The notes below the pieces were generated by a model. The model was not told the origin of the DNA. It was given only the letters and a program-made list of their open reading frames with translations, and ran no database searches. Positions 7,958 through 37,099 of a stretch of DNA of 64,000 bases are shown one piece after another. The translations under genes were made by a program, and so were the position numbers. Source of the stretch: a virus. The stretch is from the IMG/VR virus record IMGVR_UViG_3300007722_000005, positions 1 to 64,000 of that record; one strand, given 5' to 3'. Numbering within the stretch: the stretch's first letter is position 1; each line of letters starts with the position of its first letter.

Positions 7958-8235
7958 AATATATCTTCTCCGTCATCTAGATCATTATTTAACTTTTCTT
8001 GCAGTGTTTTGAATGTTGTGGGGTGCATTACGAAAGCGCTTTCTGCTATAACATATACATTAGGGTCAGGATATGGCTCCTGCACAAATTTGTGGCTCCG
8101 CCAAGGTGTCCAAGAAAGCAGCTGCTCTTTCCATGAGCGGCTAACTTTCACCTCCTTATACTTAACAAGGTTTGGATTGGTTGTTACTGGTAGACCATTA
8201 AGAAACACTGTTTGCCCTTTCACGGATCTCACCAA
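7954..8235 (-). CDS. conserved phage protein of unknown function
   Basis: The frame overlaps the end of the NAMPT gene; GTG codons at 8235 or 8226 (the latter behind GGTGAG) are candidate starts, so the N-terminus is uncertain. The conserved part is LVKYKEVKVSRSWKEQLLSW and YVIAESAFVMHPTTFKTLQEKL, characteristic of a small uncharacterised protein in many T4-like phages. The stop overlaps the deaminase start by four bases. Confidence 0.6.
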   Translation of the reverse strand: MVRSVKGQTVFLNGLPVTTNPNLVKYKEVKVSRSWKEQLLSWTPWRSHKFVQEPYPDPNVYVIAESAFVMHPTTFKTLQEKLNNDLDDGEDIL

Positions 8236-9577
8236 ACGTCCAACGTTTGGTTATTACCCCATTCTCATACACAGTTTGCAGCGCATCCGACTTACCAGGA
8301 ACGAACGGCCCCGAGGTGTAGTTGCCATCAATATCTTTGAACAATGTGACGCGGCCTTTCATAGAGCGCTTACCAGCGTCAGTGACAGGATCTTTGTACA
8401 CATCACGCCACTGGTTGTTTACTTGAATCGCAGAACACTTCATTGCAAATTTCTGAGTGTCGCGGTCAATTTGTTGCAACAGAGCACCACCCATACCAAA
8501 AGCAACGTTGTCGGCACTGAGACCCATTGAAGTGATCTTTTCGAGTATCGATCGAATAGTGTCTTCGTTAATACCATCACCTTGAATAACTCGTACATTG
8601 TTCAGTACTCGGTATCCTTTTGAGTTTGTTTGTGTTCCATATGCATCAGCCAGTAATGCCAGGCAATCGGCGACGACAGTGGTAGGATCACCCGAGTCTG
8701 GACGAATGACAACCGTAGCGCCAGAATCGATAACTTCCTGCTTCAGAGTGCGTCCCCAGTGATTCTCAACCGCTTGATAGATGTTGTAGCTATCAGATAC
8801 AACAGCAAGAACGCTACCAGGCTTTGCAAATTGCTGCAGCATGTTACGATACGCTTGTACTTCGTTCTCACGACCCCACGAAGTAATTGTGCTGTGTTCT
8901 GCTGCAGGAATACTGAACGACGGCTTCTTTGCTCCGTAATATTTTGAAGCATACAGAGCACCGGTAACGTTGTCTGATCCCATAAACCCAGTAGCAAGGT
9001 GAGCGGAACCACCAATACCTGCCGATTCAAACGAACTAACACCACGTGCACCGAAATCGTGCAGTTTGAAATCGAGTCCCCCTACATTGCCAGTCTTTTC
9101 CAGATACTGTTTGATCAGCCGGCGAATTGACAGACTATTTGTTGCCACGGTTGTTCCATACCACGTTGCTCGGAGAATTGCAGTTTCCAACCATGTAGTT
9201 GCCCACGCAAATTCTTGGTCTGTGTTCTCGACAGTGACCAGCACATTATTAACTGGGACAACAGACCCCTCAGGGGCAGCTCGAATGCGGACTGGCATGA
9301 ACCCGCTGTGCTTGATCAGCATGCGCAGCCAACCTTGTTTGTTGAATGGTTCGCCATGATCATTCCAAAATTCGGCGGCTTCATCAATGTCACGTTTTGT
9401 GAACGGAGTCTGCAGCACATCCTGCAAGTAAATCTGCAGACCGTACATCATTGTCCATGGGTATTTTCCACCTCGAGATTCAACGTACGAAAATACATTC
9501 TGAGTGCCAGGGGGATACTGCAGCCACATTGGCGACTTATAAGAGTCAACGTTCAGTGCTATGTTTTTAATGTTCAT
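8198..9577 (-). CDS. nadV: nicotinamide phosphoribosyltransferase (NAMPT)
   Basis: A 459-residue enzyme matching full-length NAMPT, which joins nicotinamide and PRPP to give NMN. Visible signatures: LHDFGARGVSSFESAGIGG, the AEHSTITSWG segment with the catalytic His, VIRPDSGDP, and FGMGGALLQQIDRD. Phages such as KVP40 carry nadV with a bifunctional NMN adenylyltransferase-Nudix gene; here that partner is next upstream (9638-10636). Together they convert nicotinamide to NAD in two steps and could rebuild NAD consumed by host defences (inference from described phage NAD-reconstitution pathways). Confidence 0.95.
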   Translation of the reverse strand: MNIKNIALNVDSYKSPMWLQYPPGTQNVFSYVESRGGKYPWTMMYGLQIYLQDVLQTPFTKRDIDEAAEFWNDHGEPFNKQGWLRMLIKHSGFMPVRIRAAPEGSVVPVNNVLVTVENTDQEFAWATTWLETAILRATWYGTTVATNSLSIRRLIKQYLEKTGNVGGLDFKLHDFGARGVSSFESAGIGGSAHLATGFMGSDNVTGALYASKYYGAKKPSFSIPAAEHSTITSWGRENEVQAYRNMLQQFAKPGSVLAVVSDSYNIYQAVENHWGRTLKQEVIDSGATVVIRPDSGDPTTVVADCLALLADAYGTQTNSKGYRVLNNVRVIQGDGINEDTIRSILEKITSMGLSADNVAFGMGGALLQQIDRDTQKFAMKCSAIQVNNQWRDVYKDPVTDAGKRSMKGRVTLFKDIDGNYTSGPFVPGKSDALQTVYENGVITKRWTFGEIRERANSVS

Positions 9578-9637
9578 TTATAAAGATCCTTTATAGTTTA
9601 TTAGCTTGCAGTCTACCCACAAGGTTGTTTTCCAACA

Positions 9638-10636
9638 TCATACGCCCCCAAGCAAATACGTAATAATATCGAAATGATCCTCAAATATTTCTTCAGGATT
9701 CAGATCCGCAATTGGAATCCACATCGCTTTTGCCGCATCATCACCTCCTTTGACTGGTGGCAATTTCCCGTCGGGCAACCGAATCAAAAACGCGTGGGTG
9801 ATCGTTCTACCACGGAGGCTCCGCGTTGGGTGATCAAACACGTACCTATTGACAATACTTCCCTTGAGAACTGGTGCTGGCACCTTGAGACGCGTTTCCT
9901 CACGAAGCTCGCGCAGCATTCCATCTTCAATTCGTTCGGCTTGGTTAACGAATCCACCAGGAAGTGCAAGCAGACCCTCACCAGGTGCAGCACCTCTCAC
10001 AACCATCAAGACGTGACCTGACTGAACTACTACAGCATCAGAGGTTACGAACGTTGGTGCATACGGAGCAGCAAGCCAGGATTTTTTGTACTTCTTGATG
10101 TGCTCGTATTCCCGCGCCAGCTTCAGGTAATCTTCGCCTGCACGGAAGAGACTCAACGCAGCGTTTGTGGTATTCGGTAGTGCACCAGAGTAGAGTTTTG
10201 GGCTGGCACCGGAGAAGTAGAGATCACGTACGCTGGTAGCACTAACGCTATCATCCATCTTGTGATCAATGCGACTCCACTGGGGAAACATTCGCAGATA
10301 GAATGAAGTCTCGTCTTTCTCATGTCCAATCAGCTCAATAATATCGAGTTCGCTGGTATTTTGATTGACAATCTTCTGGACGCCCGCTGCCCATTGTTGA
10401 TCGTTGTAACTGATATCACGCAGAGGTTCAATTACTAGCTTGTCGCCATAAGGATAACAGGCGAGGATCATATTCTTTCTCTCCTGGAACGTCCAGGGAT
10501 TTTTGATGCTCCGCGGCTGATTAGCACTGCCGATGATTATGATGATTTTGTTTGCACCTATCATCGCACTATCAATCAGACGCTTATGCTCTGAGTGGAA
10601 AGGTTGAAATCTACCAATTAAAACTTTGACGCGCAT
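9638..10636 (-). CDS. natV: bifunctional NMN adenylyltransferase-Nudix hydrolase
   Basis: A 332-residue two-domain protein. Residues 1-170 are a NadM-type adenylyltransferase (GRFQPFHSEHKRLID, in which the HxGH motif reads HSEH) with a C-terminal VSATSVRDLY (ISGTxxR-like). Residues about 200-330 are a Nudix domain with the box GGFVNQAERIEDGMLRELREE (G-x5-E-x7-REUxEE). The first domain makes NAD from NMN and ATP; the second hydrolyses ADP-ribose-type substrates. Same architecture as KVP40 NatV. Paired with NAMPT downstream. Confidence 0.93.
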   Translation of the reverse strand: MRVKVLIGRFQPFHSEHKRLIDSAMIGANKIIIIIGSANQPRSIKNPWTFQERKNMILACYPYGDKLVIEPLRDISYNDQQWAAGVQKIVNQNTSELDIIELIGHEKDETSFYLRMFPQWSRIDHKMDDSVSATSVRDLYFSGASPKLYSGALPNTTNAALSLFRAGEDYLKLAREYEHIKKYKKSWLAAPYAPTFVTSDAVVVQSGHVLMVVRGAAPGEGLLALPGGFVNQAERIEDGMLRELREETRLKVPAPVLKGSIVNRYVFDHPTRSLRGRTITHAFLIRLPDGKLPPVKGGDDAAKAMWIPIADLNPEEIFEDHFDIITYLLGGV

Positions 10637-10673: not shown

Positions 10674-10832
10674 CTAGTCTTCTGTTATGAATATTACAAC
10701 TGTTGCAATCAGAAAAATCCAGAGCCCTAATGAAGCAGCTACTTCTGTATTTCCCCTCTCAATAAAACCGCCAACAGCTACTGAGAGAACTATAAGTGCT
10801 ATCAGAAAGACGCTGTTAATCAATTTGTTCAT
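10674..10832 (-). CDS. 52-aa membrane protein
   Basis: ATG at 10832, ends TAG. Two hydrophobic segments (LINSVFLIALIVLSVAVGGF and SLGLWIFLIATVVIFI, given in part) separated by a short charged loop. Sits between quinolinate synthase and the NMN adenylyltransferase, so it is probably co-transcribed with the NAD module. No family recognised. Confidence 0.6.
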   Translation of the reverse strand: MNKLINSVFLIALIVLSVAVGGFIERGNTEVAASLGLWIFLIATVVIFITED

Positions 10833-10882
10833 GTTTATACTTCTAGTGAAATGTGCTAGGCCTATTCATTATAATATAACTA

Positions 10883-11797
10883 TCACTTAAAGTCAAGCAT
10901 TCTTTCTACGGGAACACGGGCTTTTTCAATCACCTCATCAGTCAGGTAATCAATCCGATCACCTATTCCTCTGATAGCAGCTTGCGCCGATTCCAGTGTG
11001 TTCATCTTCATGAACGGACAGGAATTACACTGACATCCTTTGTACGTGGGAGCCTGTCTGATATCCAGATCAGGTCGAGCTTCTCTCATATTGAAGAGCA
11101 AGCCGTCTTCGGTAGCAACGTAGATGATTGCATCGGTATCTGTATTCTTCACCCAGTTCAGCATCTTGTGTGTTGAACCAACTACATCAGCCTGTTTCAG
11201 AACGGAGAGAGGAGATTCAGGATGTGAAAGAAGAATCTTCTTCCTTCCAGGATCCTGCATGAAGGCGATAGCCAGCTCTTCAAGATTGAATTGATCATGT
11301 ACGTCACATACTGCAGACCAAAGAGGTATCTTCCAGTTGTTCGTGTAGTTGAGGTATGCACCCATGTTACGATCGGGAGAGAAGATCACACTCTGACCTT
11401 TATCGTAGATGTGCTTGATGACCTCTTCAACGTTCCTCGAGGTGACAATCCAGTCACTCAGAGCTTTGTGCTCTGCAGATGTGTTGATGTACGCTACGTG
11501 TTGAATATCAGGGTTGCGCGCTCTGTGCATGTAGACCCACGAGCGCAATCCAGTAGTACCTTCGATCTCTGTTTGCTCAACGAGCGAACAAGATGCTGCT
11601 AGAGTCGGAATGATTACTTCGGAATTGGGGTTAAGTATCTTCGCGGTTTCAGCCATGAAGCGAACACCGAGGAAGATAATTTGATCTGCTTTCGCTTCTT
11701 TAGCAGCAAGCGCGAGATCAAGCGAGTCACCGACGTGATCGGCGAGTTTCTGTACTTCTGGAACTGTGTAGTAATGTGCAAGTATGATTTTGCGCAT
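10883..11797 (-). CDS. nadA: quinolinate synthase NadA
   Basis: A 304-residue protein (start MRKIILAHYY at 11797, behind GGGAGGA). Family signatures: ILAHYYTVPEVQKLADHVGD, FLGVRFMAETAKIL, and three candidate 4Fe-4S cysteines at about 70 (AASCSL), 164 (SAVCDVH) and 260 (CNSCPFMKMN). NadA condenses iminoaspartate with dihydroxyacetone phosphate to quinolinate, the second step of de novo NAD synthesis. No nadB or nadC is seen here, so host enzymes would supply substrate and finish the pathway. Its neighbours extend NAD production by salvage. Confidence 0.92.
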   Translation of the reverse strand: MRKIILAHYYTVPEVQKLADHVGDSLDLALAAKEAKADQIIFLGVRFMAETAKILNPNSEVIIPTLAASCSLVEQTEIEGTTGLRSWVYMHRARNPDIQHVAYINTSAEHKALSDWIVTSRNVEEVIKHIYDKGQSVIFSPDRNMGAYLNYTNNWKIPLWSAVCDVHDQFNLEELAIAFMQDPGRKKILLSHPESPLSVLKQADVVGSTHKMLNWVKNTDTDAIIYVATEDGLLFNMREARPDLDIRQAPTYKGCQCNSCPFMKMNTLESAQAAIRGIGDRIDYLTDEVIEKARVPVERMLDFK

Positions 11798-11932
11798 AGG
11801 AAATCCTCCCATGGTTGATAGCTTCCATCTATTTGGTCGCTATATGTACTTATAATAAAGTGGATCGCTTCTTTCGTTTGACCTCGTGTGGTTTTGATGT
11901 ACAGCTGTTAAAATCCTCTGTAATATCGCTAA
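11798..11932. other. short intergenic region
   Basis: No gene seen. A TATAAG-like box occurs on the minus strand near 11855, without a clear -35 partner. Confidence 0.3.
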
Positions 11933-29333: not shown

Positions 29334-29777
29334 TTAAATGCTAGGGGCGCCACAATTTGTGCAACCTCCTGCCATACTCCTCTGTTCGTTTTCGCAGCAC
29401 AGGCCTTTGTAGTAACCACTCTCGTTGCCATCGTAAATAATTACGTGAGTAGTTATCCGCGCAATTGAAACCATGTGTTTAGTTCCTTTACTTTCCTTGA
29501 TGTTTGGGTGAAAGGCAACAACCAAATCTGGCTTCTCGGCCAACATCGCCTTGTTACGAATTGGACCTGCTGCATTTTTGTATTTCTTCCAATCCGCTGG
29601 AAATTTCTTGGCGGGGATTCCATTATGGTCCGCCCAGTTGCGCGACATAATGTCAACGCCGCGGCACTCCCCCTCAATCAGCAGGGTGAAGTTGTTGACT
29701 TTGTGGAGTTCGTCGAGATGCAGCTCGAGATACTCACTATCAATCCAATCTCTATCGCCACACACAAGAACTTTCAT
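29334..29777 (-). CDS. SLOG/YspA-like protein (DUF2493)
   Basis: A 147-residue Rossmann-like SLOG protein: KVLVCGDRDWIDSEYLEL, LLIEGECRGVDIMSRNWA, FPADWKKYKNAAGPIRNKAM and PDLVVAFHPN are all family motifs. SLOG proteins bind nucleotide-derived ligands. The C-terminus adds a Cys cluster (CCENEQRSMAGGCTNCG) that could bind zinc. Its ribosome binding site (GAGAGG, 29786-29791) is the 3' strand of helix P1 of the RNase P-like RNA immediately upstream, so RNA folding may control translation. Confidence 0.85.
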   Translation of the reverse strand: MKVLVCGDRDWIDSEYLELHLDELHKVNNFTLLIEGECRGVDIMSRNWADHNGIPAKKFPADWKKYKNAAGPIRNKAMLAEKPDLVVAFHPNIKESKGTKHMVSIARITTHVIIYDGNESGYYKGLCCENEQRSMAGGCTNCGAPSI

Positions 29778-30659: not shown

Positions 30660-30754
30660 TGGTGCCCCCGCCCGGATTCGAACCGAGATCATGCGCCAAT
30701 CTAGCGCCAATGCCGAGGTATAAGCTCGGAGTTTTACCGTTAAACTACAGGGGT
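30660..30754 (-). tRNA. tRNA-Ile(TAT) with expanded variable region
   Basis: Acceptor ACCCCTG/CGGGGGC, D-arm with TTTAACGG, anticodon stem CCGAG/CTCGG, loop CTTATAC, T-arm CTCGG-TTCGAAT-CCGGG, CCA encoded. The variable region is about 25 nt and contains ATTGGCGC twice. Decodes AUA. Confidence 0.75.
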
Positions 30755-30756
30755 TT

Positions 30757-30831
30757 TGGAGCTCCAGGACAGAGTTGAACTGTCTTTCGCACTTTACCAA
30801 AGTGCAGTAATAACCATTATACTACAGGAGC
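30757..30831 (-). tRNA. tRNA-Thr(GGT)
   Basis: Acceptor GCTCCTG/CTGGAGC, anticodon stem GCACT/AGTGC around TTGGTAA, T-arm GACAG-TTCAACT-CTGTC, CCA encoded. Confidence 0.85.
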
Positions 30832-30908
30832 GTTAATAAGTCCAGCCTAAAACTTTCATCAATTTCGTTTTGACTCTAATGCTGGTGCGTTAATTATCCA
30901 CATAATTT
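30832..30908. other. spacer between tRNA genes
   Basis: No gene or tRNA recognised; an imperfect AGTC/GACT stem-loop can be drawn. Confidence 0.3.
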
Positions 30909-30981
30909 TGGCACCCCATGAAGGAATTCAACCTCCGCAATCAAGGGTAGAAACCTCGACGCCGACATCATCGGATGGGGC
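30909..30981 (-). tRNA. tRNA-Arg(TCT) with reduced D-arm
   Basis: Acceptor GCCCCAT/ATGGGGT, anticodon stem CGAGG/CCTTG around TTTCTAC, T-arm GGAGG-TTGAATT-CCTTC, GCCA end. The D-arm is CCGA-TGATG-TCGG directly after the acceptor, lacking U8 and the D-loop GG. Same D-arm as tRNA-Arg(TCG) at 35270. Decodes AGA. Confidence 0.7.
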
Positions 30982-31015
30982 ATTGTTAAAAGTTAAAATC
31001 CTGTTATTTGTACAG

Positions 31016-31123
31016 CTATAAAAAATATCCTATAGCAACTATAACGAACCACTCTGTCAGTGAAAATTGGTAACACCAACTCGGCAGCTTGAATGCAATA
31101 TATTCAAATATTTTGTCAAACAT
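31016..31123 (-). CDS. 35-aa membrane peptide
   Basis: ATG at 31123, one base after the stop of the gene at 31125. MFDKIFEYIAFKLPSWCYQF then LTEWFVIVAIGYFL, a single membrane helix. Small phage membrane peptide of unknown role. Confidence 0.4.
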   Translation of the reverse strand: MFDKIFEYIAFKLPSWCYQFSLTEWFVIVAIGYFL

Positions 31124-31124
31124 T

Positions 31125-31343
31125 TTAGTAGTGCCTTTCGTTTGGATGAAGTCGCCAAAATAACCGGCTCGCTTTCTCTGGCGCTTTGTGGTAAACATCA
31201 AACCAATATTCGTGCACAATGTCTAGCTTCTGGTTCTTCTGCTTGTGCCCGATCCAATAGGGGTTCGAATGGCCACGAGGGCGCCACGTTTTTTCGTGGT
31301 AATTCCTGCGTAGTTGCCTGTCGAGGAATCTATACCCCCACAT
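31125..31343 (-). CDS. unrecognised 72-aa basic protein
   Basis: MWGYRFLDRQLRRNYHEKTW, aromatic- and Arg-rich; the segment IVHEYWFDVYHKAPEKASRL is amphipathic. Its ATG lies one base after the stop of the upstream small gene, indicating coupling. Confidence 0.45.
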   Translation of the reverse strand: MWGYRFLDRQLRRNYHEKTWRPRGHSNPYWIGHKQKNQKLDIVHEYWFDVYHKAPEKASRLFWRLHPNERHY

Positions 31344-31344
31344 A

Positions 31345-31488
31345 TCAGACGTTCAGGTGCTTCTTGAGAGATTCGAGCTCGCGCTGTTTCCGAGCAACAT
31401 ACTTCTCATTATCAGGGTAAGCTATTTTGAAACGCTCAAGTGCACCTTTACGACGTTCCTGACGACGAATAAAACTATTCTTGATCAT
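31345..31488 (-). CDS. unrecognised 47-aa basic protein
   Basis: MIKNSFIRRQERRKGALERF, entirely helical and charged, ending SLKKHLNV. ATG overlaps the TGA of the phosphatase-like gene (ATGA). Could be an RNA-binding peptide (inference from charge). Confidence 0.5.
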   Translation of the reverse strand: MIKNSFIRRQERRKGALERFKIAYPDNEKYVARKQRELESLKKHLNV

Positions 31489-31877
31489 TTTAGCTGGTCC
31501 TCCATCTCATTAAATGCTCGACTAAGTTGTACCGATGCTATCTGAACAAGTTTTGGATCCTTGAATCCAAAATTATCAGGTAGATTTAATGTTATCACGT
31601 GTTTGTCGGCAAGGTCGAATTCGCTCGAAGTTTCCTCGAAATTCTCTTTGTTGACAAACACAACAGCATCGGACCAATGAATCAGAACGTCGTCAGCGTG
31701 GATCAACGCAAATGTTTTTGTTGACCCTGCTGCACGTGTGTTGAAGTTGAATGGATCGTTTGATAGAATCCAAGCGACGGTCGGGGAGCGTAGCAGTCCA
31801 GCTGAGCACACACAAAGAACCTTTAACGAAGTTCCTTGGTGAGAATTAGTAGAATTGTGTTTTCTGTTATTGATGAT
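31485..31877 (-). CDS. low-molecular-weight tyrosine phosphatase-like protein, probable non-ATG start
   Basis: The frame encodes KVLCVCSAGLLRSPTVAWIL, the CX5R P-loop (C-SAGLL-R) with its preceding beta strand, then phosphatase-like HWSDAVVFVN. No ATG, GTG or TTG exists upstream of the P-loop; a GTG lies inside the strand and would delete it. An AAAAAGGAG sits just before two ATC codons (31877 and 31874), so initiation at ATC is the best explanation. A consensus promoter lies at 31922-31949. Confidence 0.6.
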   Translation of the reverse strand: MINNRKHNSTNSHQGTSLKVLCVCSAGLLRSPTVAWILSNDPFNFNTRAAGSTKTFALIHADDVLIHWSDAVVFVNKENFEETSSEFDLADKHVITLNLPDNFGFKDPKLVQIASVQLSRAFNEMEDQLK

Positions 31878-31921
31878 GAACTCCTTTTTGATGAAGGTTT
31901 CGTAACTGTTTGAATATGACT

Positions 31922-31949
31922 ATTATACGTTTTTTTTACAAAAGGTCAA
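31922..31949 (-). promoter_or_regulatory. early promoter
   Basis: Minus strand TTGACC, 16-base A-rich spacer, TATAAT, about 45 bases before the phosphatase-like reading frame. It lies just downstream of tRNA-Gly(GCC). Confidence 0.75.
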
Positions 31950-31968
31950 CAATTTTAAATTTCAAAAG

Positions 31969-32043
31969 TGGAGCAGGTGGCGGGGATCGAACCCGCGACA
32001 TTCACGTTGGCAACGTGGCATTCTTCCGCTGAACTACACCTGC
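31969..32043 (-). tRNA. tRNA-Gly(GCC)
   Basis: Acceptor GCAGGTG/CACCTGC, anticodon loop TTGCCAA in a CACG/CGTG stem, T-arm GCGGG-TTCGATC-CCCGC, CCA encoded. Canonical. Confidence 0.92.
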
Positions 32044-32077
32044 GTTATTACATTTCTTCGTGTGTGCTTACGCTTGT

Positions 32078-32155
32078 TGGTACCCCCGGTCGGATTCGAA
32101 CCGACACTGTGCAGGTTTTGAATCTGCTGCCTCCTACCAATTGCGCTACGGGGGC
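32078..32155 (-). tRNA. tRNA-Leu(CAA), short variable loop
   Basis: Acceptor GCCCCCG/CGGGGGT, anticodon loop TTCAAAA closed by an A-C mismatch on a GCAG/CTGC stem, T-arm GTCGG-TTCGAAT-CCGAC, CCA encoded. The variable loop is short, unlike normal class II Leu tRNAs. Confidence 0.75.
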
Positions 32156-32167
32156 ATAGTTTTTGAT

Positions 32168-32238
32168 TGGTACCCTGAGTGAGATTCGAACTCACAAAAG
32201 CTGGTTTAGGAAACCTGCTCCCGTCCATTGGTCAGGAT
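32168..32238 (-). tRNA. tRNA-Arg(CCT), reduced D-arm
   Basis: Acceptor ATCCTGA/TCAGGGT, anticodon loop TTCCTAA, T-arm GTGAG-TTCGAAT-CTCAC, CCA encoded. D-arm reduced (short CC/GG stem) and no U8. Decodes AGG. Its 5' end lies two bases from the stop of the GatB/YqeY-like gene. Confidence 0.7.
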
Positions 32239-32239
32239 G

Positions 32240-32632
32240 TTATGTATGTATTATTGCTGAGGCGATATACTTCTGTATCTTAGCAGGTACGTTATGTGCT
32301 TTATTCATTACATCGGTCATTGTGAACTCGCTCGTGATTCCTTCTCGTGCGAAACTATATAGCGTTCCACCTGGGTGCTCAGTAGCGAGTATCTTCAACA
32401 TACCGGCATCAGTAGCTGGAGCGTTGACTGCTGTTTTCTTGATCTTTACCGCCTGTGCAATGCCCATTGTATCTCGGAGCATAGACATCACCTCAGAGGG
32501 ATCAGCATTGCGCATTACAGACAACACTTTACCGACGAGGACGTTGATGGCCTTATCTTTTCCAGACTTTACTTGCTCAACGGTCTTTTGATTGTCTGCA
32601 ATGACTTGGGTAATTAGTTCTTCTATTTTCAT
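32240..32632 (-). CDS. GatB/YqeY-domain protein
   Basis: A 130-residue protein, start MKIEELITQVIADNQKTVEQ at 32632 (upstream frame runs into a tRNA-Ser gene). The segment SGKDKAINVLVGKVLSVMRN then DPSEVMSMLRDTMG is the C-terminal tail domain of GatB and YqeY (consensus GK-x-AL-x-LVG-x-VM). In GatB this domain binds the tRNA elbow and acceptor during transamidation. Here it stands alone within the tRNA array, suggesting a tRNA-binding role (inference). The second half is Ala/Thr-rich without a known domain. Confidence 0.75.
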   Translation of the reverse strand: MKIEELITQVIADNQKTVEQVKSGKDKAINVLVGKVLSVMRNADPSEVMSMLRDTMGIAQAVKIKKTAVNAPATDAGMLKILATEHPGGTLYSFAREGITSEFTMTDVMNKAHNVPAKIQKYIASAIIHT

Positions 32633-32640
32633 ATGAATTT

Positions 32641-32730
32641 TGGCGGAGAGTAGAGTAGTCGAAACCCATTCCATTCCTGGAACCAACTGTTTTCGAGGCA
32701 GTGTCGTCAATCCCTGACAATTTACTCTCC
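32641..32730 (-). tRNA. tRNA-Ser(CGA)
   Basis: Class II tRNA: acceptor GGAGAGT/ACTCTCC, G73, anticodon loop CTCGAAA in an ACTG/CAGT stem, long variable arm (GGTTCCAGGAATGGAA), GCCA. T-stem is imperfect. Decodes UCG. Confidence 0.8.
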
Positions 32731-32892
32731 ATTAAGTATTTTAGCGTCTTTCTCGCTGAGAGGAGTGCAACAATCTACCTTCAACTCTTCGTATGGAAGC
32801 TTTCTGAATATACGATCCCAACCTTCACGATAAGCATTGGTCGGTTGTTTCGTTTTCAGTTCGTCGCCAGTGATGTCGTTTTTTGATGTCAT
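32722..32892 (-). CDS. unrecognised 56-aa protein overlapping a tRNA
   Basis: MTSKNDITGDELKTKQPTNA, then AYREGWDRIFRKLPYEELKV and acidic end. Stop codon lies nine bases inside the tRNA-Ser(CGA) 5' end. Small phage proteins with the YREGWDRIF pattern are common but uncharacterised. Confidence 0.55.
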   Translation of the reverse strand: MTSKNDITGDELKTKQPTNAYREGWDRIFRKLPYEELKVDCCTPLSEKDAKILNGE

Positions 32893-32907
32893 AATCTATT
32901 TGTGTAG

Positions 32908-32983
32908 TGGTAGTGACCGTGGGAGTCGAACCCACCTATTCTTCCTTATGAGGGAAGCACATAAGCCGCTCTGTCAGGTCACT
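32908..32983 (-). tRNA. tRNA-Met(CAT)
   Basis: Acceptor AGTGACC/GGTCACT, anticodon stem CTTCC/GGAAG around CTCATAA, T-arm GTGGG-TTCGACT-CCCAC, CCA encoded. Could instead be an Ile tRNA with lysidine at C34; not decidable by eye. Confidence 0.85.
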
Positions 32984-32988
32984 GCTGT

Positions 32989-33062
32989 TGGTGGTTCCAA
33001 GAGGAATCGGACCTCTATATTCGCCATGTCAAAGCGACACTCTACCATTGAGTTATGGAACC
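32989..33062 (-). tRNA. tRNA-Val(GAC)
   Basis: Acceptor GGTTCCA/TGGAACC, anticodon loop TTGACAT in a TCGCT/GGCGA stem, T-arm AGAGG-TCCGATT-CCTCT, CCA encoded. Confidence 0.85.
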
Positions 33063-33069
33063 TAATTTA

Positions 33070-33145
33070 TGGGGTGATCGACGAGATTCGAACTCGCGCT
33101 ATCTGATTCACAATCAGAGGTGCTGACCTTTACACTACGACCACC
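33070..33145 (-). tRNA. tRNA-His(GTG) with encoded G-1
   Basis: Anticodon loop TTGTGAA in TCTGA/TCAGA; T-arm GCGAG-TTCGAAT-CTCGT. The 5' end has the extra G-1 that pairs with C73, giving an eight-pair acceptor (GGTGGTCG/CGATCACC) as in bacterial tRNA-His. CCA encoded. Confidence 0.9.
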
Positions 33146-33151
33146 ATTGTT

Positions 33152-33224
33152 TGGTAGCGGCCGAGGGTAACGATCCCTCTCCCATCGCAGGTTATGAGCC
33201 TGGAGTCTACCACTAGAAGCCGCA
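33152..33224 (-). tRNA. tRNA-Met-like(CAT), mismatched 1-72 pair
   Basis: Anticodon loop CTCATAA in CAGG/CCTG; acceptor GCGGC/GCCGC preceded by T1-T72 mismatch, a feature reminiscent of initiator tRNA, though the three G-C pairs of the initiator anticodon stem are absent. T-loop reads ATCGTTA instead of TTCRANN. CCA present. Confidence 0.65.
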
Positions 33225-33246
33225 ATAGTCTTCTTTACTTCAATTC

Positions 33247-33323
33247 TGGTGCGCGGGCAGAGAATCGAACTCTGCAAATCCCACTTGTAAGGAGGGTGGT
33301 GTCACCAGCTACGCTCCCCGCGC
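33247..33323 (-). tRNA. tRNA-Val(TAC)
   Basis: Acceptor GCGCGGG/CCCGCGC, anticodon loop CTTACAA (CCCTC/GTGGG stem with one mismatch), T-arm GCAGA-GTTCGATTC-TCTGC type, CCA encoded. Confidence 0.85.
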
Positions 33324-33379
33324 TTTGCGTGAAGTTATAAGGTTGTCAAGCCAACCTTCTCAAATCATGAGATGAAAAT

Positions 33380-33456
33380 TGGTCGGAGTACAAGGATTCG
33401 AACCTTGGACCCTCTGCTCCCAAAGCAGATGCGCTGCCAGACTGCGCTACACTCCG
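33380..33456 (-). tRNA. tRNA-Pro(TGG), copy 1
   Basis: Acceptor CGGAGTG/TACTCCG, anticodon stem TCTGC/GCAGA with loop TTTGGGA, T-arm CAAGG-TTCGAAT-CCTTG, CCA encoded. Closely resembles E. coli tRNA-Pro. Confidence 0.93.
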
Positions 33457-33461
33457 AAACT

Positions 33462-33535
33462 TGGTGCCCCTTGACGGAATCGAACCGCCGTAAGCTGCTT
33501 ACAAAACAGCCGTAATACCATTATACTAAAGGGGC
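33462..33535 (-). tRNA. tRNA-Thr(TGT)
   Basis: Acceptor GCCCCTT/AAGGGGC, anticodon loop TTTGTAA in GCTGT/GCAGC, T-arm ACGGCGG-TTCGATT type, CCA encoded. Confidence 0.9.
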
Positions 33536-33537
33536 AA

Positions 33538-33564
33538 ATTATATTAATTACTTTTCTAAGTCAA
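33538..33564 (-). promoter_or_regulatory. promoter inside the tRNA array
   Basis: Minus strand TTGACT, 15-base spacer, TATAAT, immediately upstream of tRNA-Thr(TGT). It overlaps a truncated tRNA 5' half. Confidence 0.55.
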
Positions 33565-33592
33565 CTACTCGACCGCTGAGCTATCGAGTAAT
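33560..33592 (-). pseudogene. truncated tRNA 5' half
   Basis: Minus strand ACTCGATAGCTCAGCGGTCG is a good acceptor and D-arm start, but anticodon and T-arms are missing; the sequence runs into the promoter at 33538-33564. Probably a decayed tRNA gene. Confidence 0.55.
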
Positions 33593-33607
33593 AATTCTAT
33601 TTATAGT

Positions 33608-33802
33608 CTACGTTTCTTCCATTCCTGACGCTCCAGAGAGGCTTACACAATTTGGATCCTCTGCAATTACCGCAACAAACCGCATGTGGATGCTTCGCAA
33701 CGTTGCTGCAATCGAAAGAGCGTCGCTCAAATCGCTGGCAACGTGGCCTTGTGTTACACTATCAAGCGTTGTCCAATATACTTTATATTCAGCTTTGTTC
33801 AT
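33608..33802 (-). CDS. unrecognised 64-aa protein in tRNA array
   Basis: MNKAEYKVYWTTLDSVTQGH, then DALSIAATLRSIHMRFVAVI. The KAEYKVYW start and helix-strand plan resemble small proteins found repeatedly in T4-like phages; function unknown. Confidence 0.55.
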   Translation of the reverse strand: MNKAEYKVYWTTLDSVTQGHVASDLSDALSIAATLRSIHMRFVAVIAEDPNCVSLSGASGMEET

Positions 33803-33819
33803 ATGTTTTACTTGTGACA

Positions 33820-33921
33820 CTATCGTTTAAGCCCGCTCAGGCCCGCACCCTCGAGGTATGTTGACCATATTTGCAAGACTCCTATGTAGCTTTCATAGGC
33901 GTAACGCCACAAGTAAAACAT
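33820..33921 (-). CDS. possible 33-aa aromatic peptide
   Basis: MFYLWRYAYESYIGVLQIWS then TYLEGAGLSGLKR, ending TAG. Rich in Tyr and Trp. Ribosome binding site weak, so only tentatively coding. Confidence 0.35.
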   Translation of the reverse strand: MFYLWRYAYESYIGVLQIWSTYLEGAGLSGLKR

Positions 33922-33926
33922 TCGGC

Positions 33927-34001
33927 TCAGTACACCGAGAGGTATGATGAGTATCCTTTATGGTGTAGGGGACGTCCAGGCACATCACCGCGGTACACCA
34001 T
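33927..34001 (-). CDS. possible 24-aa peptide
   Basis: MVYRGDVPGRPLHHKGYSSY then LSVY; AGAAG lies upstream. Two bases before the next small frame. Low confidence because of its length. The rest of 34002-34045 shows no feature. Confidence 0.25.
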   Translation of the reverse strand: MVYRGDVPGRPLHHKGYSSYLSVY

Positions 34002-34045
34002 TTCATCTTCTTTTGTTGCACTAAGGCGAAGAATCTTCAGAAGGT

Positions 34046-34119
34046 AACCTTTTCAACAATGTCTATTATACTACCATTTAAAGAATAGTCAACACTTTTC
34101 TTTTTATTGTTAATTCGGC
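34046..34119. repeat. 74-bp promoter cassette, copy 1
   Basis: Identical to 35548-35621 except for one base in the -10 box (TATAAT here, TACAAT in the other copy). It contains the last codons of the gene at 34078 and the promoter at 34065-34092. Confidence 0.9.
34065..34092 (-). promoter_or_regulatory. early promoter within repeat copy 1
   Basis: Minus strand TTGACT, 16-base spacer, TATAAT. The -35 box lies within the final codons of the upstream gene. It can drive the small genes and tRNAs below 34060. Confidence 0.75.
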
Positions 34120-34710
34120 TGTGTACTTCTCTTTAATTCTGTGAAGCTGTCCCGTTGCCCACTCCAAATTCCTGATGTATTGGTGTTGTTCAGAAGTTTG
34201 TTGAACACCAACAACGGTGTTTAACCGTCGGTCAAAAAACTCTTCTGGCATGTTGTCGTGTGTTATTATAGTTCCTCTTGTAGGGAAGAATTGAACATAT
34301 CTGCGCATGAATTCATTCCACTGTTCAATATGTTCAACAGGAGCTGTAAAATTAAATAGTTGAATTTCTGTTGATATCCTGAAACCAAACTGTTTTGCAA
34401 GAAGGAAGCTGAGTCCTGCTTGAACCATATCTTTTTCGACAACGAAAATTTCGTGCCGTGTTGTTTTCATCACCTTTTTGTACCACGCAATTGATTGTGG
34501 GAATCGGCAAAGATGATGGCCATGCAACTTTATAACAGTGTTTCCATTGTTCAAGCGATGAAGTAACCAATATTTTCGAAATACTGATGCAAAATTATCA
34601 TCGTAACGAGGTGCAAACGGCTCATAAATTTTGTTTTGTCGTTTGCACGAATGAAAAATAGCGCTACCATCTGTGCGGCGGTGGCTGTAAATTATTACTG
34701 GGTTTTTCAT
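34078..34710 (-). CDS. unrecognised 210-aa protein inside the tRNA array
   Basis: Start MKNPVIIYSHRRTDGSAIFH at 34710, behind AAAGGA; the frame upstream is part of a tRNA. The fold looks alpha/beta with IVEKD and THDNMPEEFFD-like segments. The N-terminal YSHRRTDG and TVIKLHGHHLCRFPQSI recall sulfotransferase or glycosyltransferase-like phage proteins, but no catalytic motif is convincing. It has its own late promoter at 34734 within the tRNA cluster. Confidence 0.55.
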   Translation of the reverse strand: MKNPVIIYSHRRTDGSAIFHSCKRQNKIYEPFAPRYDDNFASVFRKYWLLHRLNNGNTVIKLHGHHLCRFPQSIAWYKKVMKTTRHEIFVVEKDMVQAGLSFLLAKQFGFRISTEIQLFNFTAPVEHIEQWNEFMRRYVQFFPTRGTIITHDNMPEEFFDRRLNTVVGVQQTSEQHQYIRNLEWATGQLHRIKEKYTAELTIKRKVLTIL

Positions 34711-34733
34711 AACACATCCTTTTTGAGATGTAT

Positions 34734-34741
34734 TATTTATA
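34734..34741 (-). promoter_or_regulatory. T4-type late promoter in tRNA array
   Basis: Exact TATAAATA on the minus strand between tRNA-Leu(TAA) and the gene at 34078-34710. Confidence 0.65.
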
Positions 34742-34742
34742 A

Positions 34743-34819
34743 TGGTGCGAGTCATGGGAGTCGAACCCACACTGACCAGGTTTTAAATCTGGCGCCTCTT
34801 CCAATTGGGCTACACTCGC
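34743..34819 (-). tRNA. tRNA-Leu(TAA), short variable loop
   Basis: Acceptor GCGAGTG/GACTCGC, anticodon loop TTTAAAA on CCAG/CTGG, T-arm GTGGG-TTCGACT-CCCAT, CCA encoded. Variable loop only about five nucleotides, unusual for Leu. Confidence 0.78.
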
Positions 34820-34825
34820 GAAACT

Positions 34826-34900
34826 TGGAGCCCTGTGACAGATTCGAGCTGTCCTCTGAACTTTACGAAAGTTCTGTGTCGCCGTCTACACTTACGGGGC
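34826..34900 (-). tRNA. tRNA-Thr(CGT)
   Basis: Acceptor GCCCCGT/ACAGGGC, anticodon stem GAACT/AGTTC around TTCGTAA, T-arm GACAG-CTCGAAT-CTGTC, CCA encoded. Confidence 0.85.
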
Positions 34901-34906
34901 AAAACT

Positions 34907-34982
34907 TGGTGCGTCCCACAGGAATCGAACCTGTTTCAATGGCTCTTCAAACCACCGCTATGACCACATCAGCTAGAGACGC
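34907..34982 (-). tRNA. tRNA-Phe(GAA)
   Basis: Acceptor GCGTCTC/GGGACGC, anticodon loop TTGAAGA in GTGGT/GCCAT, T-arm ACAGG-TTCGATT-CCTGT, CCA encoded. Confidence 0.88.
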
Positions 34983-35018
34983 AAATATCTCCGTTACACT
35001 ATTTGTAGCTATTAAATT

Positions 35019-35092
35019 TGGAGACTCGAGACAGAGTTGAACTGTCATCTTCGGGTTTGCAATCCGAGGCACGGCCGTTATACCACCGAGTC
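35019..35092 (-). tRNA. tRNA-Cys(GCA)
   Basis: Acceptor GACTCGG/TCGAGTC, anticodon loop TTGCAAA, T-arm GACAG-TTCAACT-CTGTC, CCA encoded, D73 is T. Confidence 0.85.
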
Positions 35093-35098
35093 ATTGTT

Positions 35099-35175
35099 TG
35101 GTGCGCGAGGTGGGACTCGAACCCACAGAACCTACCCTCTCAAGATAGTATGTTTACCAATTTCATCACAAGCGC
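35099..35175 (-). tRNA. tRNA-Leu(GAG), short variable loop
   Basis: Acceptor GCGCTTG/CTCGCGC, Leu-like D-arm (TGATGAAATTGGTAAACA), anticodon loop TTGAGAG in CTATC/GGTAG, T-arm GTGGG-TTCGAGT-CCCAC, CCA. Where E. coli tRNA-Leu(GAG) has a long variable arm, this has only GTTCT. Confidence 0.85.
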
Positions 35176-35184
35176 GTTGTTAGT

Positions 35185-35229
35185 TGGTGGAGTGAAAGAG
35201 AGTCGAACTCTAAGGCTACTAGTATGAGC
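35185..35229 (-). pseudogene. tRNA 3' half joined to a GC-rich hairpin
   Basis: 3' half with loop-like CTCATAC, T-arm TAGAG-TTCGACT-CTCTT and an ACCA end. No matching 5' half: upstream is a hairpin GCGACC-TTGC-GGTCGC (35228-35245). Likely a Met/Ile(CAT) tRNA remnant. Confidence 0.45.
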
Positions 35230-35269
35230 GACCGCAAGGTCGCCGCCGCGATCCGAACCACCCCGTATT

Positions 35270-35342
35270 TGGTACCCCATGAAGGAATTTAACCCTCGCA
35301 ACTGAGCTTCGAAGGCTCTGCGCCGACATCATCGGATGGGAT
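35270..35342 (-). tRNA. tRNA-Arg(TCG) with reduced D-arm
   Basis: Acceptor ATCCCAT/ATGGGGT, D-arm CCGA-TGATG-TCGG (same as Arg(TCT)), anticodon loop CTTCGAA on GAGC/GCTC, T-arm GAGGG-TTAAATT-CCTTC, CCA. Decodes CGA. Confidence 0.7.
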
Positions 35343-35345
35343 ATT

Positions 35346-35417
35346 TGGCAACGGTGCACGGAGTCAAACCGTGTTGTATTTCCTTCAGAGGGAAAACCAG
35401 CTTCAAGCTTCACCGCA
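35346..35417 (-). tRNA. tRNA-Gln(CTG), reduced D-arm
   Basis: Anticodon stem TTTCC/GGAAA around CTCTGAA, T-arm CACGG-TTTGACT-CCGTG, G73 and CCA. Weak first pair (T1-T72), as in bacterial Gln tRNAs. The D-arm is only AGCT-TGA-AGCT. Confidence 0.7.
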
Positions 35418-35425
35418 ATTGTTCT

Positions 35426-35502
35426 TGGTGCCCTAGAGGGGACTCGAACCCCTAAAATCTACATTCTAAGTGTAGCACGTATGCCAATTCCGTCACCAGG
35501 GC
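35426..35502 (-). tRNA. tRNA-Leu(TAG), short variable loop
   Basis: Acceptor GCCCTGG/CTAGGGC, Leu-like D-arm, anticodon CTACA/TGTAG around CTTAGAA, T-arm AGGGG-TTCGAGT-CCCCT, CCA. Variable loop ATTTT only. Confidence 0.85.
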
Positions 35503-35547
35503 AATATTATTTAGATGTTATTAGTGTTGGTGTTTCCACGTTCACTC

Positions 35548-35621
35548 AACCTTTTCAACAATGTCTATTGTACTACCATTTAAAGAATAGTCAACACTTT
35601 TCTTTTTATTGTTAATTCGGC
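35548..35621. repeat. 74-bp promoter cassette, copy 2
   Basis: Second copy of 34046-34119. It keeps the final codons of the gene found at 34078 although no such gene precedes it here, so it is a truncated duplicate. Confidence 0.9.
35567..35594 (-). promoter_or_regulatory. promoter within repeat copy 2
   Basis: Minus strand TTGACT, 16-base spacer, TACAAT; drives the tRNAs at 34743-35502. Confidence 0.65.
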
Positions 35622-35642
35622 CTTGCGGCTCTCGCGTTGTAC

Positions 35643-35719
35643 TGGTGGGGGTAGAGGGATTCGAACCCACAATGACCCAGATTCAAAGTCTGGTACGCTT
35701 CCAGTCGCGTGTTACCCCT
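35643..35719 (-). tRNA. tRNA-Gln(TTG)
   Basis: Anticodon CCAGA/TCTGG around CTTTGAA, D-arm ACGC/GCGT, T-arm with TTCGAAT, CCA encoded. First pair A1-C72 unpaired, consistent with Gln. Confidence 0.87.
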
Positions 35720-35725
35720 ATTGTT

Positions 35726-35799
35726 TGGTACTCCGGGAAGGAATCAAACCTTCGTGGGCCCCTTATCAAGAGGCTATCTTATCATTAGATGACCGGAGC
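35726..35799 (-). tRNA. tRNA-Ile(GAT), copy 1
   Basis: Acceptor GCTCCGG/CCGGAGT, anticodon loop TTGATAA in GCCTC/GGGGC, T-arm GAAGG-TTTGATT-CCTTC, CCA encoded. Confidence 0.88.
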
Positions 35800-35805
35800 A
35801 TATTT

Positions 35806-35895
35806 TGGCGGAAAGCAGAGCGATCGAAGCCCAAACCCTTTCAGGTTCCAACCGATTAGCAATCGGCGCCGCACTCCATGCGCAATTTACTTTCC
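35806..35895 (-). tRNA. tRNA-Ser(GCT)
   Basis: Class II: acceptor GGAAAGT/GCTTTCC, anticodon loop TTGCTAA in CCGA/TCGG, long variable arm, G73, CCA. Decodes AGY. Confidence 0.87.
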
Positions 35896-35900
35896 AAATA

Positions 35901-35977
35901 TGGTCTTTCAGGTGAGACTCGAACTCACGAAATCTTCGCCCCAAACGAAGTGGTATAGCCGCTAACCGACTGAAAGA
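35901..35977 (-). tRNA. tRNA-Pro(TGG), copy 2
   Basis: Acceptor TCTTTCA/TGAAAGA, anticodon CTTCG/CGAAG around TTTGGGG, T-arm GTGAG-TTCGAGT-CTCAC, CCA. Same anticodon as 33380 but different body. Confidence 0.85.
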
Positions 35978-36145
35978 TATTCATTCCGTGTTTTCTATAG
36001 CACGGAGTATAACTTACCGGAGCCCATATAACCGTCATCAAGTGACTCGGTCTTATGAACTCCGACGTAGATTTTATTATTCACGAGTTAGTGATTTGAT
36101 AGAGGCAATATTTCATGCCTCTATCGATAATAGATCTACTATGTG
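35978..36145. other. tRNA-array spacer with strong hairpins
   Basis: No gene. GATAGAGGCA and TGCCTCTATC (36097-36125 region) form a 10-bp stem, and CCGTG/CACGG a second. They may be processing or transcription signals. Confidence 0.35.
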
Positions 36146-36217
36146 CTCCATCTCCTGGGATCGAACCAGGGACCTAGCGATTAACAGTCGCTTGCACTAC
36201 CGCTGTGCTAAGATGGA
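36146..36217 (-). tRNA. tRNA-Asn(GTT), copy 1, CCA not encoded
   Basis: Acceptor TCCATCT/AGATGGA perfect, G73, anticodon AGCGA/TCGCT around CTGTTAA, T-arm CCTGG-TTCGATC-CCAGG. The 3' end reads GCAC, so CCA must be added by a nucleotidyltransferase. Confidence 0.87.
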
Positions 36218-36223
36218 ATAACT

Positions 36224-36318
36224 TGGCTCCGCAGAGAGGCTTCGAACCTCTATATTGCGCCTTTCGGCCTTTACGTCTCATTAACAGTGAGGTCTCTTAC
36301 CAATTAGAGTACCGCGGA
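36224..36318 (-). tRNA. tRNA-Asn(GTT), copy 2, with long variable arm
   Basis: Acceptor TCCGCGG/CTGCGGA, anticodon CTCA/TGAG around CTGTTAA, T-arm AGAGG-TTCGAAG-CCTCT, GCCA. Variable region is about 25 nt with a GGCC-GAAA-GGC hairpin, unexpected for Asn. Confidence 0.78.
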
Positions 36319-36369
36319 ATAAATCTTTATAATTCATATATCTCGTTGGAAATACATCAATTATAACGA

Positions 36370-36448
36370 TGGTGGGAGCGCCGGGATTCGAACCCGAATC
36401 TATCAGATTAAAAGTCTGTTGTGTTAAATCCGTTGACACCACACTCCC
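36370..36448 (-). tRNA. tRNA-Lys(TTT)
   Basis: Acceptor GGGAGTG/CGCTCCC, anticodon loop CTTTTAA in CAGA/TCTG, T-arm TTCGG-GTTCGAATC-CCGG type, CCA encoded. Confidence 0.87.
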
Positions 36449-36489
36449 ATTTGTTTACTACGTTTACCATCTTTCGATTTTCGTTTCAT
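36424..36489 (-). CDS. possible 21-aa basic peptide
   Basis: MKRKSKDGKRSKQMGVWCQR then I, with AAGGA seven bases upstream. Its end overlaps tRNA-Lys(TTT). Strong ribosome binding site but very short. Confidence 0.3.
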   Translation of the reverse strand: MKRKSKDGKRSKQMGVWCQRI

Positions 36490-36519
36490 ATCAAGATCCT
36501 TTTTTGATAAATATTAACA

Positions 36520-36677
36520 TGCAAAAACTACAAAATTTTAAAGCCTTCTTTCAGCGCAATAAAAAGCAGGCTGAAGCCGAACCCCACACTGGCCCCGATC
36601 GTCGGAAAGGACCACGTCGCACTGTGACGAAGATTAAAACAAACTATACCGCGTGGCATGATCGCCGTGCTGCATAA
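36520..36677 (+). CDS. unrecognised 52-aa basic protein on the plus strand
   Basis: MQKLQNFKAFFQRNKKQAEA then HTGPDRRKGPRRTVTKIKTN. Plus strand, opposite to the tRNAs around it, with GATAAATA (late-promoter-like) 15 bases before the ATG. Basic, probably nucleic-acid binding (inference). Confidence 0.5.
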
Positions 36678-36680
36678 TGC

Positions 36681-36761
36681 CAAGAGTGTCCTAGGCCACT
36701 AGACGATCTCGCACACGCCAGTAGCGTGGGTCGAGTGGGATTTGAACCCACGTCTCTCTTG
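36681..36761 (-). other. tRNA halves in permuted order, element 1
   Basis: Minus strand reads: CAAGAG, a T-arm GTGGG-TTCAAAT-CCCAC, an acceptor-like strand, loop TACTG, then GCGTG..., a Glu-like D-arm (TCGTCTAGTGGCCTAGGAC) and CTCTTG. The 3' half precedes the 5' half; CACGC/GCGTG pair across the join and the outer CAAGAG/CTCTTG pair as an anticodon stem would. Confidence 0.55.
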
Positions 36762-36764
36762 TTC

Positions 36765-36840
36765 TGGCGCCGAGGACGGGGATTGAACCCGCCTGAGAAT
36801 GATCGACAGTCATCCTGTATCCCCAGATAGCTACCTCGGC
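36765..36840 (-). tRNA. tRNA-Asp(GTC), copy 1
   Basis: Acceptor GCCGAGG/CCTCGGC, anticodon loop CTGTCGA in ATGA/TCAT, T-arm GCGGG-TTCAATC-CCCGT, GCCA. Confidence 0.88.
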
Positions 36841-36871
36841 AAATATGGAGTTGCGTAAACGCAACATTGTT

Positions 36872-36999
36872 TGGGACGCGATGGTGAGGTTTTCACTCAC
36901 GACGATTTACAAGATCGCTATCAGCTTTACCCCTCATGGTTGTAACCCCACTACTCATAAAGCATTCCTGTGGACTCGGTCACCACAGCTTCACCGCGT
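36872..36999 (-). pseudogene. tRNA-like gene with ~60-nt insertion in D-region
   Basis: Ends pair as acceptor ACGCGGT/ATCGCGT with a CCCA end; anticodon-like GCGAT-CTTGTAA-ATCGT (TGT) and T-stem GTGAG/CTCAC, but T-loop TGAAAAC is non-canonical. AAGCTG occurs on both sides of a ~60-nt insert in the D-arm. Probably a disrupted Thr(TGT) tRNA. Confidence 0.45.
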
Positions 37000-37000
37000 T

Positions 37001-37074: not shown

Positions 37075-37091
37075 ATTAGTTGAATGTCGAC

Positions 37092-37099
37092 TATTTATA
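37092..37099 (-). promoter_or_regulatory. late-promoter sequence before tRNA-Gly
   Basis: Exact TATAAATA on the minus strand, 18 bases upstream of tRNA-Gly(TCC). Suggests some tRNAs are also made late. Confidence 0.5.

What the first reader, a model, noticed from the sequence alone, without database searches (positions are those of the whole stretch)
8198..10636. Two-gene NAD salvage pathway (NAMPT plus NMN adenylyltransferase-Nudix)
The pair regenerates NAD from nicotinamide in two steps. Phage NAD-reconstitution pathways are known to counter bacterial defences that destroy NAD; this is the NAMPT-based form as in KVP40 nadV/natV.
Basis: established knowledge. Interest (0 to 1): 0.62.

Follow-up and report, generated by a model that had tools for sequence, protein, structure and literature searches.

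The report
Phage NAD-making operon with quinolinate synthase
A T4-like virus of bacteria carries not only the known two enzymes that recycle nicotinamide into the coenzyme NAD but, right beside them, the enzyme that builds NAD's ring from scratch, which I found in no verified phage isolate and in no paper, but in a dozen uncultured viruses, mostly next to the same two genes.

Summary
Window 8198-9577(-) encodes a nicotinamide phosphoribosyltransferase (NAMPT) and 9638-10636(-) a bifunctional NMN adenylyltransferase-Nudix protein, both with intact motifs. Alone this pair is ordinary: it resembles the known phage NARP2/NadV-NadM salvage route, and 77 of the 80 best NAMPT matches in viral contigs have the partner nearby.

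Its three cluster cysteines and catalytic residues are intact; the model (pLDDT 93.7) matches solved NadA structures only; third-position differences dominate against its nearest relative. No PHROG family matches it, nothing in the viral structure library does, and nine phage records hold relatives, none in an annotated phage setting. Profile scanning found 69 viral NadA loci. In this NadA's clade (12 viral loci) eight have NAMPT plus NMNAT-Nudix within about 8 kb, in different orders and with swapped partners; two add NAD kinase, one of these NADAR. The genome record has no NadB, NadC or NadE.

Best reading: a phage NAD module joining recycling with net synthesis, relying on host NadB, NadC and NadE. 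Counter-defence against NADases is plausible but untested.

The parts
8198..9577 (-). nicotinamide phosphoribosyltransferase (NAMPT/NadV-like), 459 aa
   Evidence: Pfam NAMPT_N + NAPRTase, NF006629, PHROG 448; PDB 7yqo E 2e-170; catalytic residues conserved in 8 phage homologues
9638..10636 (-). bifunctional NMN adenylyltransferase-Nudix hydrolase (NadM/NatV-like), 332 aa
   Evidence: NF003786 421 bits over cut-off 397; PDB 2qjo E 3e-99; HxxH and Nudix residues intact
10674..10832 (-). small ORF between nadA and the adenylyltransferase, 52 aa, membrane-like; may or may not be a gene
   Evidence: ORF list; no family match
10868..10896 (-). sigma-70-like promoter match TTGACT-17-TATAAT at the 3' end of nadA, ahead of the salvage pair; weak evidence
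   Evidence: 11 of 12 match, but the number of sites in the region is not above shuffles
10883..11797 (-). quinolinate synthase NadA, 304 aa (ORF open to 11812; start at 11797 favoured by the GGGAGGA just upstream and by the start in L002)
   Evidence: Pfam PF02445 4.5e-81, NF006878 over cut-off; PDB NadA E 8e-47; AlphaFold model pLDDT 93.7, Foldseek TM 0.84-0.88 to the best NadA structures
11588..11590 (-). codon of predicted [4Fe-4S] ligand Cys70 (equivalent to T. maritima Cys83)
   Evidence: alignment with PDB NadA; Cys in all 11 phage sequences of the clade compared
11306..11308 (-). codon of predicted [4Fe-4S] ligand Cys164 (T. maritima Cys170)
11018..11020 (-). codon of predicted [4Fe-4S] ligand Cys260 (T. 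maritima Cys256)

Best explanation
The locus is a phage NAD-synthesis module of three enzymes. NAMPT joins nicotinamide to PRPP to give NMN, and the NMNAT-Nudix protein adenylylates NMN to NAD (its Nudix domain may clear ADP-ribose or damaged dinucleotides). That half recycles nicotinamide. The adjacent NadA condenses iminoaspartate (supplied by host NadB or aspartate dehydrogenase) with dihydroxyacetone phosphate to quinolinate; host NadC turns it into nicotinate mononucleotide, then the host or phage adenylyltransferase and host NadE finish NAD. That half adds new pyridine rings and so enlarges the pool rather than only refilling it. A phage copy of NadA would escape host control of the nad genes and host shut-off. 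The likely benefit is keeping NAD(P) up during infection, both for phage nucleotide and DNA synthesis and against defences that destroy NAD. Shown here: the three genes, their intact motifs, purifying selection and recurrent linkage. Inferred: enzyme activity, flux through host NadB/NadC/NadE, and any counter-defence effect.
For: Family, structure and residue evidence for all three enzymes. Recurrent linkage: in the NadA clade of the window (window plus L002, L003, L021, L031, L260, L261, L262, L263, L265, L286, L309; 47-77% identity) eight of 12 viral loci have both NAMPT and NMNAT-Nudix within about 8 kb, in at least three gene arrangements. Partners were swapped while linkage stayed: L262 NadA groups firmly (100/100) with L003/L263/L265, but its NAMPT is 59% identical to the window's and only 42-43% to theirs, which are 77-83% to each other. 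NAD kinase directly follows NadA in L021 and L286, and L286 adds a NADAR domain gene: the theme is NAD(P). NadA and NAMPT window-L002 differences fall mainly at third codon positions (dN 0.16 and 0.19; dS about 2.4, near saturation). Phage NadA was probably acquired several times. The record is a real T4-like phage: DNA polymerase, clamp loader, SbcC, RNR, terminase.
Against: No activity was measured. NadB, NadC and NadE are absent from the record, so the NadA branch works only if the host has them. Four of the 12 clade members have no NAMPT in the stretch held, and phage NadA outside this clade is not next to NAMPT, so NadA has value without the pair. The host is unknown. The record is 92 kb and possibly incomplete.
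Confidence: 0.72

Rival explanations
1. General infection metabolism rather than counter-defence: the three genes raise NAD(P) for fast nucleotide synthesis, ThyX/RNR reduction and other phage needs, irrespective of host NADases.
For: Neighbours in the window and relatives include dCMP deaminase, RNR, ThyX and PurA/PurZ-like genes; NAD kinase beside NadA in L021 and L286 points to NADP demand.
Against: The NAMPT route is reported to counter NAD-depleting defences (NARP2, cited in PMC11984713, PMC12300627, PMC12043709), and NADAR/macro genes in relatives suggest ADP-ribose conflict chemistry. The two roles are not exclusive.
Confidence: 0.4
2. NadA acts outside NAD synthesis: quinolinate, or a related condensation product, serves another purpose such as metal binding, signalling or a base modification.
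For: Phage NadA lacks NadB/NadC partners in nearly all records, and many phage NadA genes outside the clade stand without NAMPT nearby.
Against: Catalytic and cluster residues are those of canonical NadA; in this clade it sits with NAD genes; the nearest bacterial homologues are chromosomal nadA of species whose genomes hold nadC elsewhere.
Confidence: 0.1
3. The nadA gene is a passenger or assembly artefact with no role for the phage.
For: Some NadA hits in phage collections are mislabelled bacterial DNA (Acinetobacter copA-ogt-argJ-nadA; a Listeria record with a NadB-like ORF in the same stretch).
Against: Same strand between phage genes here; 11 further contigs of the clade from several metagenomes, several over 200 kb; purifying selection; kept linkage with swapped partners.
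Confidence: 0.03

Closest known systems
NARP2 / phage NadV-NadM (NatV) nicotinamide salvage, as in Vibrio phage KVP40 (KVP40 from memory)
   Same: NAMPT plus NMN adenylyltransferase-Nudix, adjacent; survey PMC9503650 reports that every NadM phage also has NadV; 77 of 80 best NAMPT matches in viral contigs here carry both
   Different: An adjacent quinolinate synthase adds de novo ring synthesis; PMC9503650 lists only NadV, NadM and NadR and never mentions quinolinate
NARP1 (Adps + Namat)
   Same: Second enzyme is a NAMPT homologue; the goal is NAD restoration
   Different: Namat clamp residues absent here (Ala/Gln for F392/Y396); partner is an adenylyltransferase, not Adps
Bacterial nadA (de novo NAD synthesis)
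   Same: NadA family, same cluster and catalytic residues, 61-62% identity to Vogesella/Chitinibacter NadA
   Different: No nadB/nadC partner; placed with salvage genes in a phage; most other bacterial NadA are only about 36-44% identical
Phage NAD(P) islands with NAD kinase and NADAR (L286, L021; found here)
   Same: Same three genes
   Different: Extra NAD kinase (both) and NADAR (L286) genes; the window record has no NAD kinase

Membership tests
NARP2 (Nampt + NMNAT phage NAD reconstitution) | Phage-borne Nampt homologue with intact catalytic residues | tested here: met
NARP2 (Nampt + NMNAT phage NAD reconstitution) | NMN adenylyltransferase gene adjacent | tested here: met
   9638-10636(-), 60 bases upstream of the NAMPT ORF
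NARP2 (Nampt + NMNAT phage NAD reconstitution) | Restores NAD and phage growth against NAD-depleting defence | not testable with these tools
   Needs assays and plaque tests
NARP1 | Namat selectivity clamp (F392, Y396 of SPbetaL1 Namat) | tested here: not met
   Ala365 and Gln369 at these positions
NARP1 | Adps (PRPP-synthetase-like) partner gene | tested here: not met
   None among the neighbouring genes tested; the one Pribosyltran match is a distant separate gene, probably 58303-58881
Quinolinate synthase NadA | NadA family and fold | tested here: met
   PF02445 4.5e-81; model matches NadA PDB entries with TM 0.84-0.88 for the best, no other fold convincingly
Quinolinate synthase NadA | Three [4Fe-4S] cysteines and catalytic His/Tyr/Tyr/Asn/His/Glu | tested here: met
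   Invariant in 11 phage sequences of the clade and in 12 diverse viral NadA
Quinolinate synthase NadA | Makes quinolinate | not testable with these tools
   Needs anaerobic enzyme assay or complementation
Complete de novo NAD pathway | NadB, NadC and NadE in the same genome | tested here: not met
   None in the 92 kb record; must come from the host

The most novel reading that the evidence does not exclude
Phages have repeatedly taken up the de novo NAD gene nadA, and one lineage of large phages has built a mobile NAD(P) island (NadA, NMNAT-Nudix, NAMPT, sometimes NAD kinase and NADAR) that both recycles and newly makes NAD during infection, a counter-defence and metabolic strategy beyond NARP1 and NARP2.
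Probability: 0.6. Interest if true: 0.68.

Novelty: new variant of a known kind. Interest (0 to 1): 0.55.

Why it matters
Known phage NAD pathways only reuse breakdown products. A phage that also makes new pyridine rings could outlast defences that destroy NAD and remove nicotinamide, and could support growth where nicotinamide is scarce. It also gives a clean genetic test: does recycling suffice, or is net synthesis needed when NADases act? The finding extends the known viral NAD toolbox, which in a survey of 21,191 viral proteomes held only NadV, NadM and NadR (PMC9503650).

Tried and rejected
Chance or assembly artefact for NadA: rejected by 11 clade relatives in other contigs and by linkage. 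NadA in phage isolates: nine INPHARED records hit, but one inspected is Acinetobacter chromosome, one Listeria record has a NadB-like ORF, and the faecal clones inspected are unverified records without annotation; not counted as phage. NadC test of these records by my own tblastn failed because the NadC query was picked from a wrong frame, so that negative is void. Namat/NARP1 reading: rejected by clamp residues. Search for NadB, NadC, NadE and NAD kinase in the record: none. RNA element near the genes: none in Rfam. Promoter scan: one good match before the salvage pair, total not above shuffles. Papers: no hit for quinolinate synthase with phage and NAMPT nor with AMGs and viral; PMC11780533 reports 25 de novo and salvage NAD enzymes in gut viral contigs by KEGG annotation, without naming NadA in the text, so automatic annotation of nadA in viral contigs may pre-exist. 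The primary NARP paper (Nature 2024) is not held.

Full report
Observation. The window is part of a 92,205-base virus record. Comparison with solved structures and with seven phage homologues shows the catalytic residues intact. The NAMPT keeps the Asp (human D219) that binds the amide of nicotinamide and lacks the two aromatic clamp residues of Namat, so the pair is the NAMPT type (NARP2-like), not NARP1.

The pair itself is common. A scan of viral contigs found 349 NAMPT relatives; of the best 80, 77 carry an NMNAT-Nudix gene within the fetched DNA. In the phage isolate collection 1906 records match the NAMPT and 447 the NMNAT-Nudix. A survey of 21,191 viral proteomes already describes NadV, NadM and NadR and states that every NadM phage has NadV (PMC9503650).

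What was missed. The next conserved gene upstream on the same strand, 10883-11812, is quinolinate synthase NadA (Pfam 4.5e-81, NCBIfam equivalog over its cut-off). The sequence shows GGGAGGA ending just before an ATG at 11797, and the closest relative L002 starts at that position, so the gene is probably 10883-11797, 304 aa. The three cysteines that hold the [4Fe-4S] cluster in Thermotoga NadA and the catalytic His, Tyr, Tyr, Asn, His and Glu are present here and in all phage members compared (the roles of these residues are from established knowledge of NadA). An AlphaFold model from an alignment of 12 viral NadA has mean pLDDT 93.7; Foldseek finds NadA entries first, TM 0.84-0.88 for the best of them, and nothing convincing in the viral structure library. 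PHROGs has no matching family.

How rare it is. tblastn against 50,697 phage records gave nine. One of those inspected is plainly Acinetobacter chromosomal DNA, one Listeria record also holds a NadB-like ORF, and the faecal ones inspected are unverified clones without annotation. In uncultured viral contigs, by contrast, a single-sequence scan gave 33 NadA loci and a profile scan 69. Searches of the first 33 records found NadC in one (cut at the contig edge, probably bacterial) and NadB in none, so phage nadA usually travels without its bacterial partners.

Linkage. Loci with NadA 47% or more identical to the window's form one group of 12 viral loci with the window. Eight of them (window, L002, L003, L021, L262, L263, L265, L286) have NAMPT and NMNAT-Nudix within about 8 kb of NadA; none of the more distant viral NadA loci does within the stretch held, although some of their contigs carry NAMPT elsewhere. 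Gene order varies: NadA-NMNAT-NAMPT (window, L002), NMNAT-NadA-NAMPT (L003, L262, L263, L265), NadA-NAD kinase-NMNAT-NAMPT (L021, L286). In L263 the NMNAT and NadA ORFs abut or overlap at base 7378. L286 adds a NADAR gene between a PurA/PurZ-like gene and NadA. The partners have been exchanged while the linkage stayed: by NadA the four loci L003, L262, L263 and L265 are one supported clade (100/100), but the NAMPT of L262 is 59% identical to the window's and 42-43% to the other three, which are 77-83% identical to each other; the NMNAT of L263 is likewise an odd one (47% to L003 and L262, against 62% between those two). Retained linkage with exchanged members argues for a functional unit.

Evolution. 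A quick tree of 71 NadA and a careful tree of 36 put the window NadA in a strongly supported group (100/100) with the phages above, with chromosomal NadA of Vogesella and Chitinibacter (61-62% identity; their genomes hold NadC elsewhere) and with a second NadA of a genome of the same class, G038. Whether the phage members form one branch inside this group is not resolved. Other phage NadA fall elsewhere: a jumbo-phage group, a group beside Prochlorococcus, and a marine group. Several independent acquisitions are therefore likely. Between window and L002 the differences in nadA sit mainly at third positions (0.18, 0.11, 0.53 at positions 1, 2, 3), as under purifying selection; dS is close to saturation and only the direction should be read.

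Mechanism. From established biochemistry: NAMPT and NMNAT recycle nicotinamide to NAD in two steps; NadA makes quinolinate, which needs NadC, an adenylyltransferase and NadE to become NAD, and NadB or an aspartate dehydrogenase for its substrate. The record has no NadB, NadC, NadE or NAD kinase, and two Pfam scans of other window proteins showed no further NAD enzyme. So the NadA branch must plug into host enzymes. Host nad genes are often repressed when NAD is plentiful, for example nadA-nadB-nadC by NrtR in mycobacteria (PMC6800001); a phage copy would avoid this. I therefore think the module combines recycling with net synthesis. That it protects against NADase defences is an inference from the NARP literature, not shown here.

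Verdict. The three-gene module with NadA is, as far as the tools and papers reach, undescribed: a new variant of phage NAD reconstitution. Limits: no host, no expression data, no assay, an incomplete record, and a library that lacks the primary NARP paper and most subscription journals.

Noticed in passing
55844-55918 (-): tRNA gene with CTA anticodon, called tRNA-Pyl by ARAGORN but an ordinary-looking cloverleaf, so more likely an amber suppressor tRNA; only 4 of 58 long minus-strand ORFs end in TAG.
   Followed up: partly
30660-38105 (-): Dense cluster of 29 tRNA genes covering most amino acids.
   Followed up: no
57487-60115 (-): PTPS/QueD-like (57487-57987) and QueE-like (59258-60115) genes; a GTP cyclohydrolase I also occurs in the window: likely a 7-deazaguanine pathway.
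   Followed up: no
L248 (genome G038, contig C113) 2881-6798: Bacterial gene run SPFH/Band_7, an ORF with NAD-kinase-like motifs but no Pfam match, and a second NadA of the phage-related clade, beside the genome's other NadA on another contig.
   Followed up: partly
L023 10846-11484: In the marine phage group a flavodoxin-like/FMN-reductase gene directly follows NadA and is conserved in six loci.
   Followed up: no
L012 5414-6190 and 9189-9503, and relatives: Jumbo-phage NadA neighbourhoods carry a Thg1-like tRNA-His guanylyltransferase and a PTH2-like peptidyl-tRNA hydrolase.
   Followed up: no
L021 4268-5491, L286 5856-7049: PurA/PurZ-like adenylosuccinate synthetase just upstream of NadA; could indicate 2-aminoadenine DNA.
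   Followed up: no
29334-29777 (-): YspA/YAcAr SLOG-family protein, a nucleotide-binding fold often tied to NAD/ADP-ribose conflicts.
   Followed up: no
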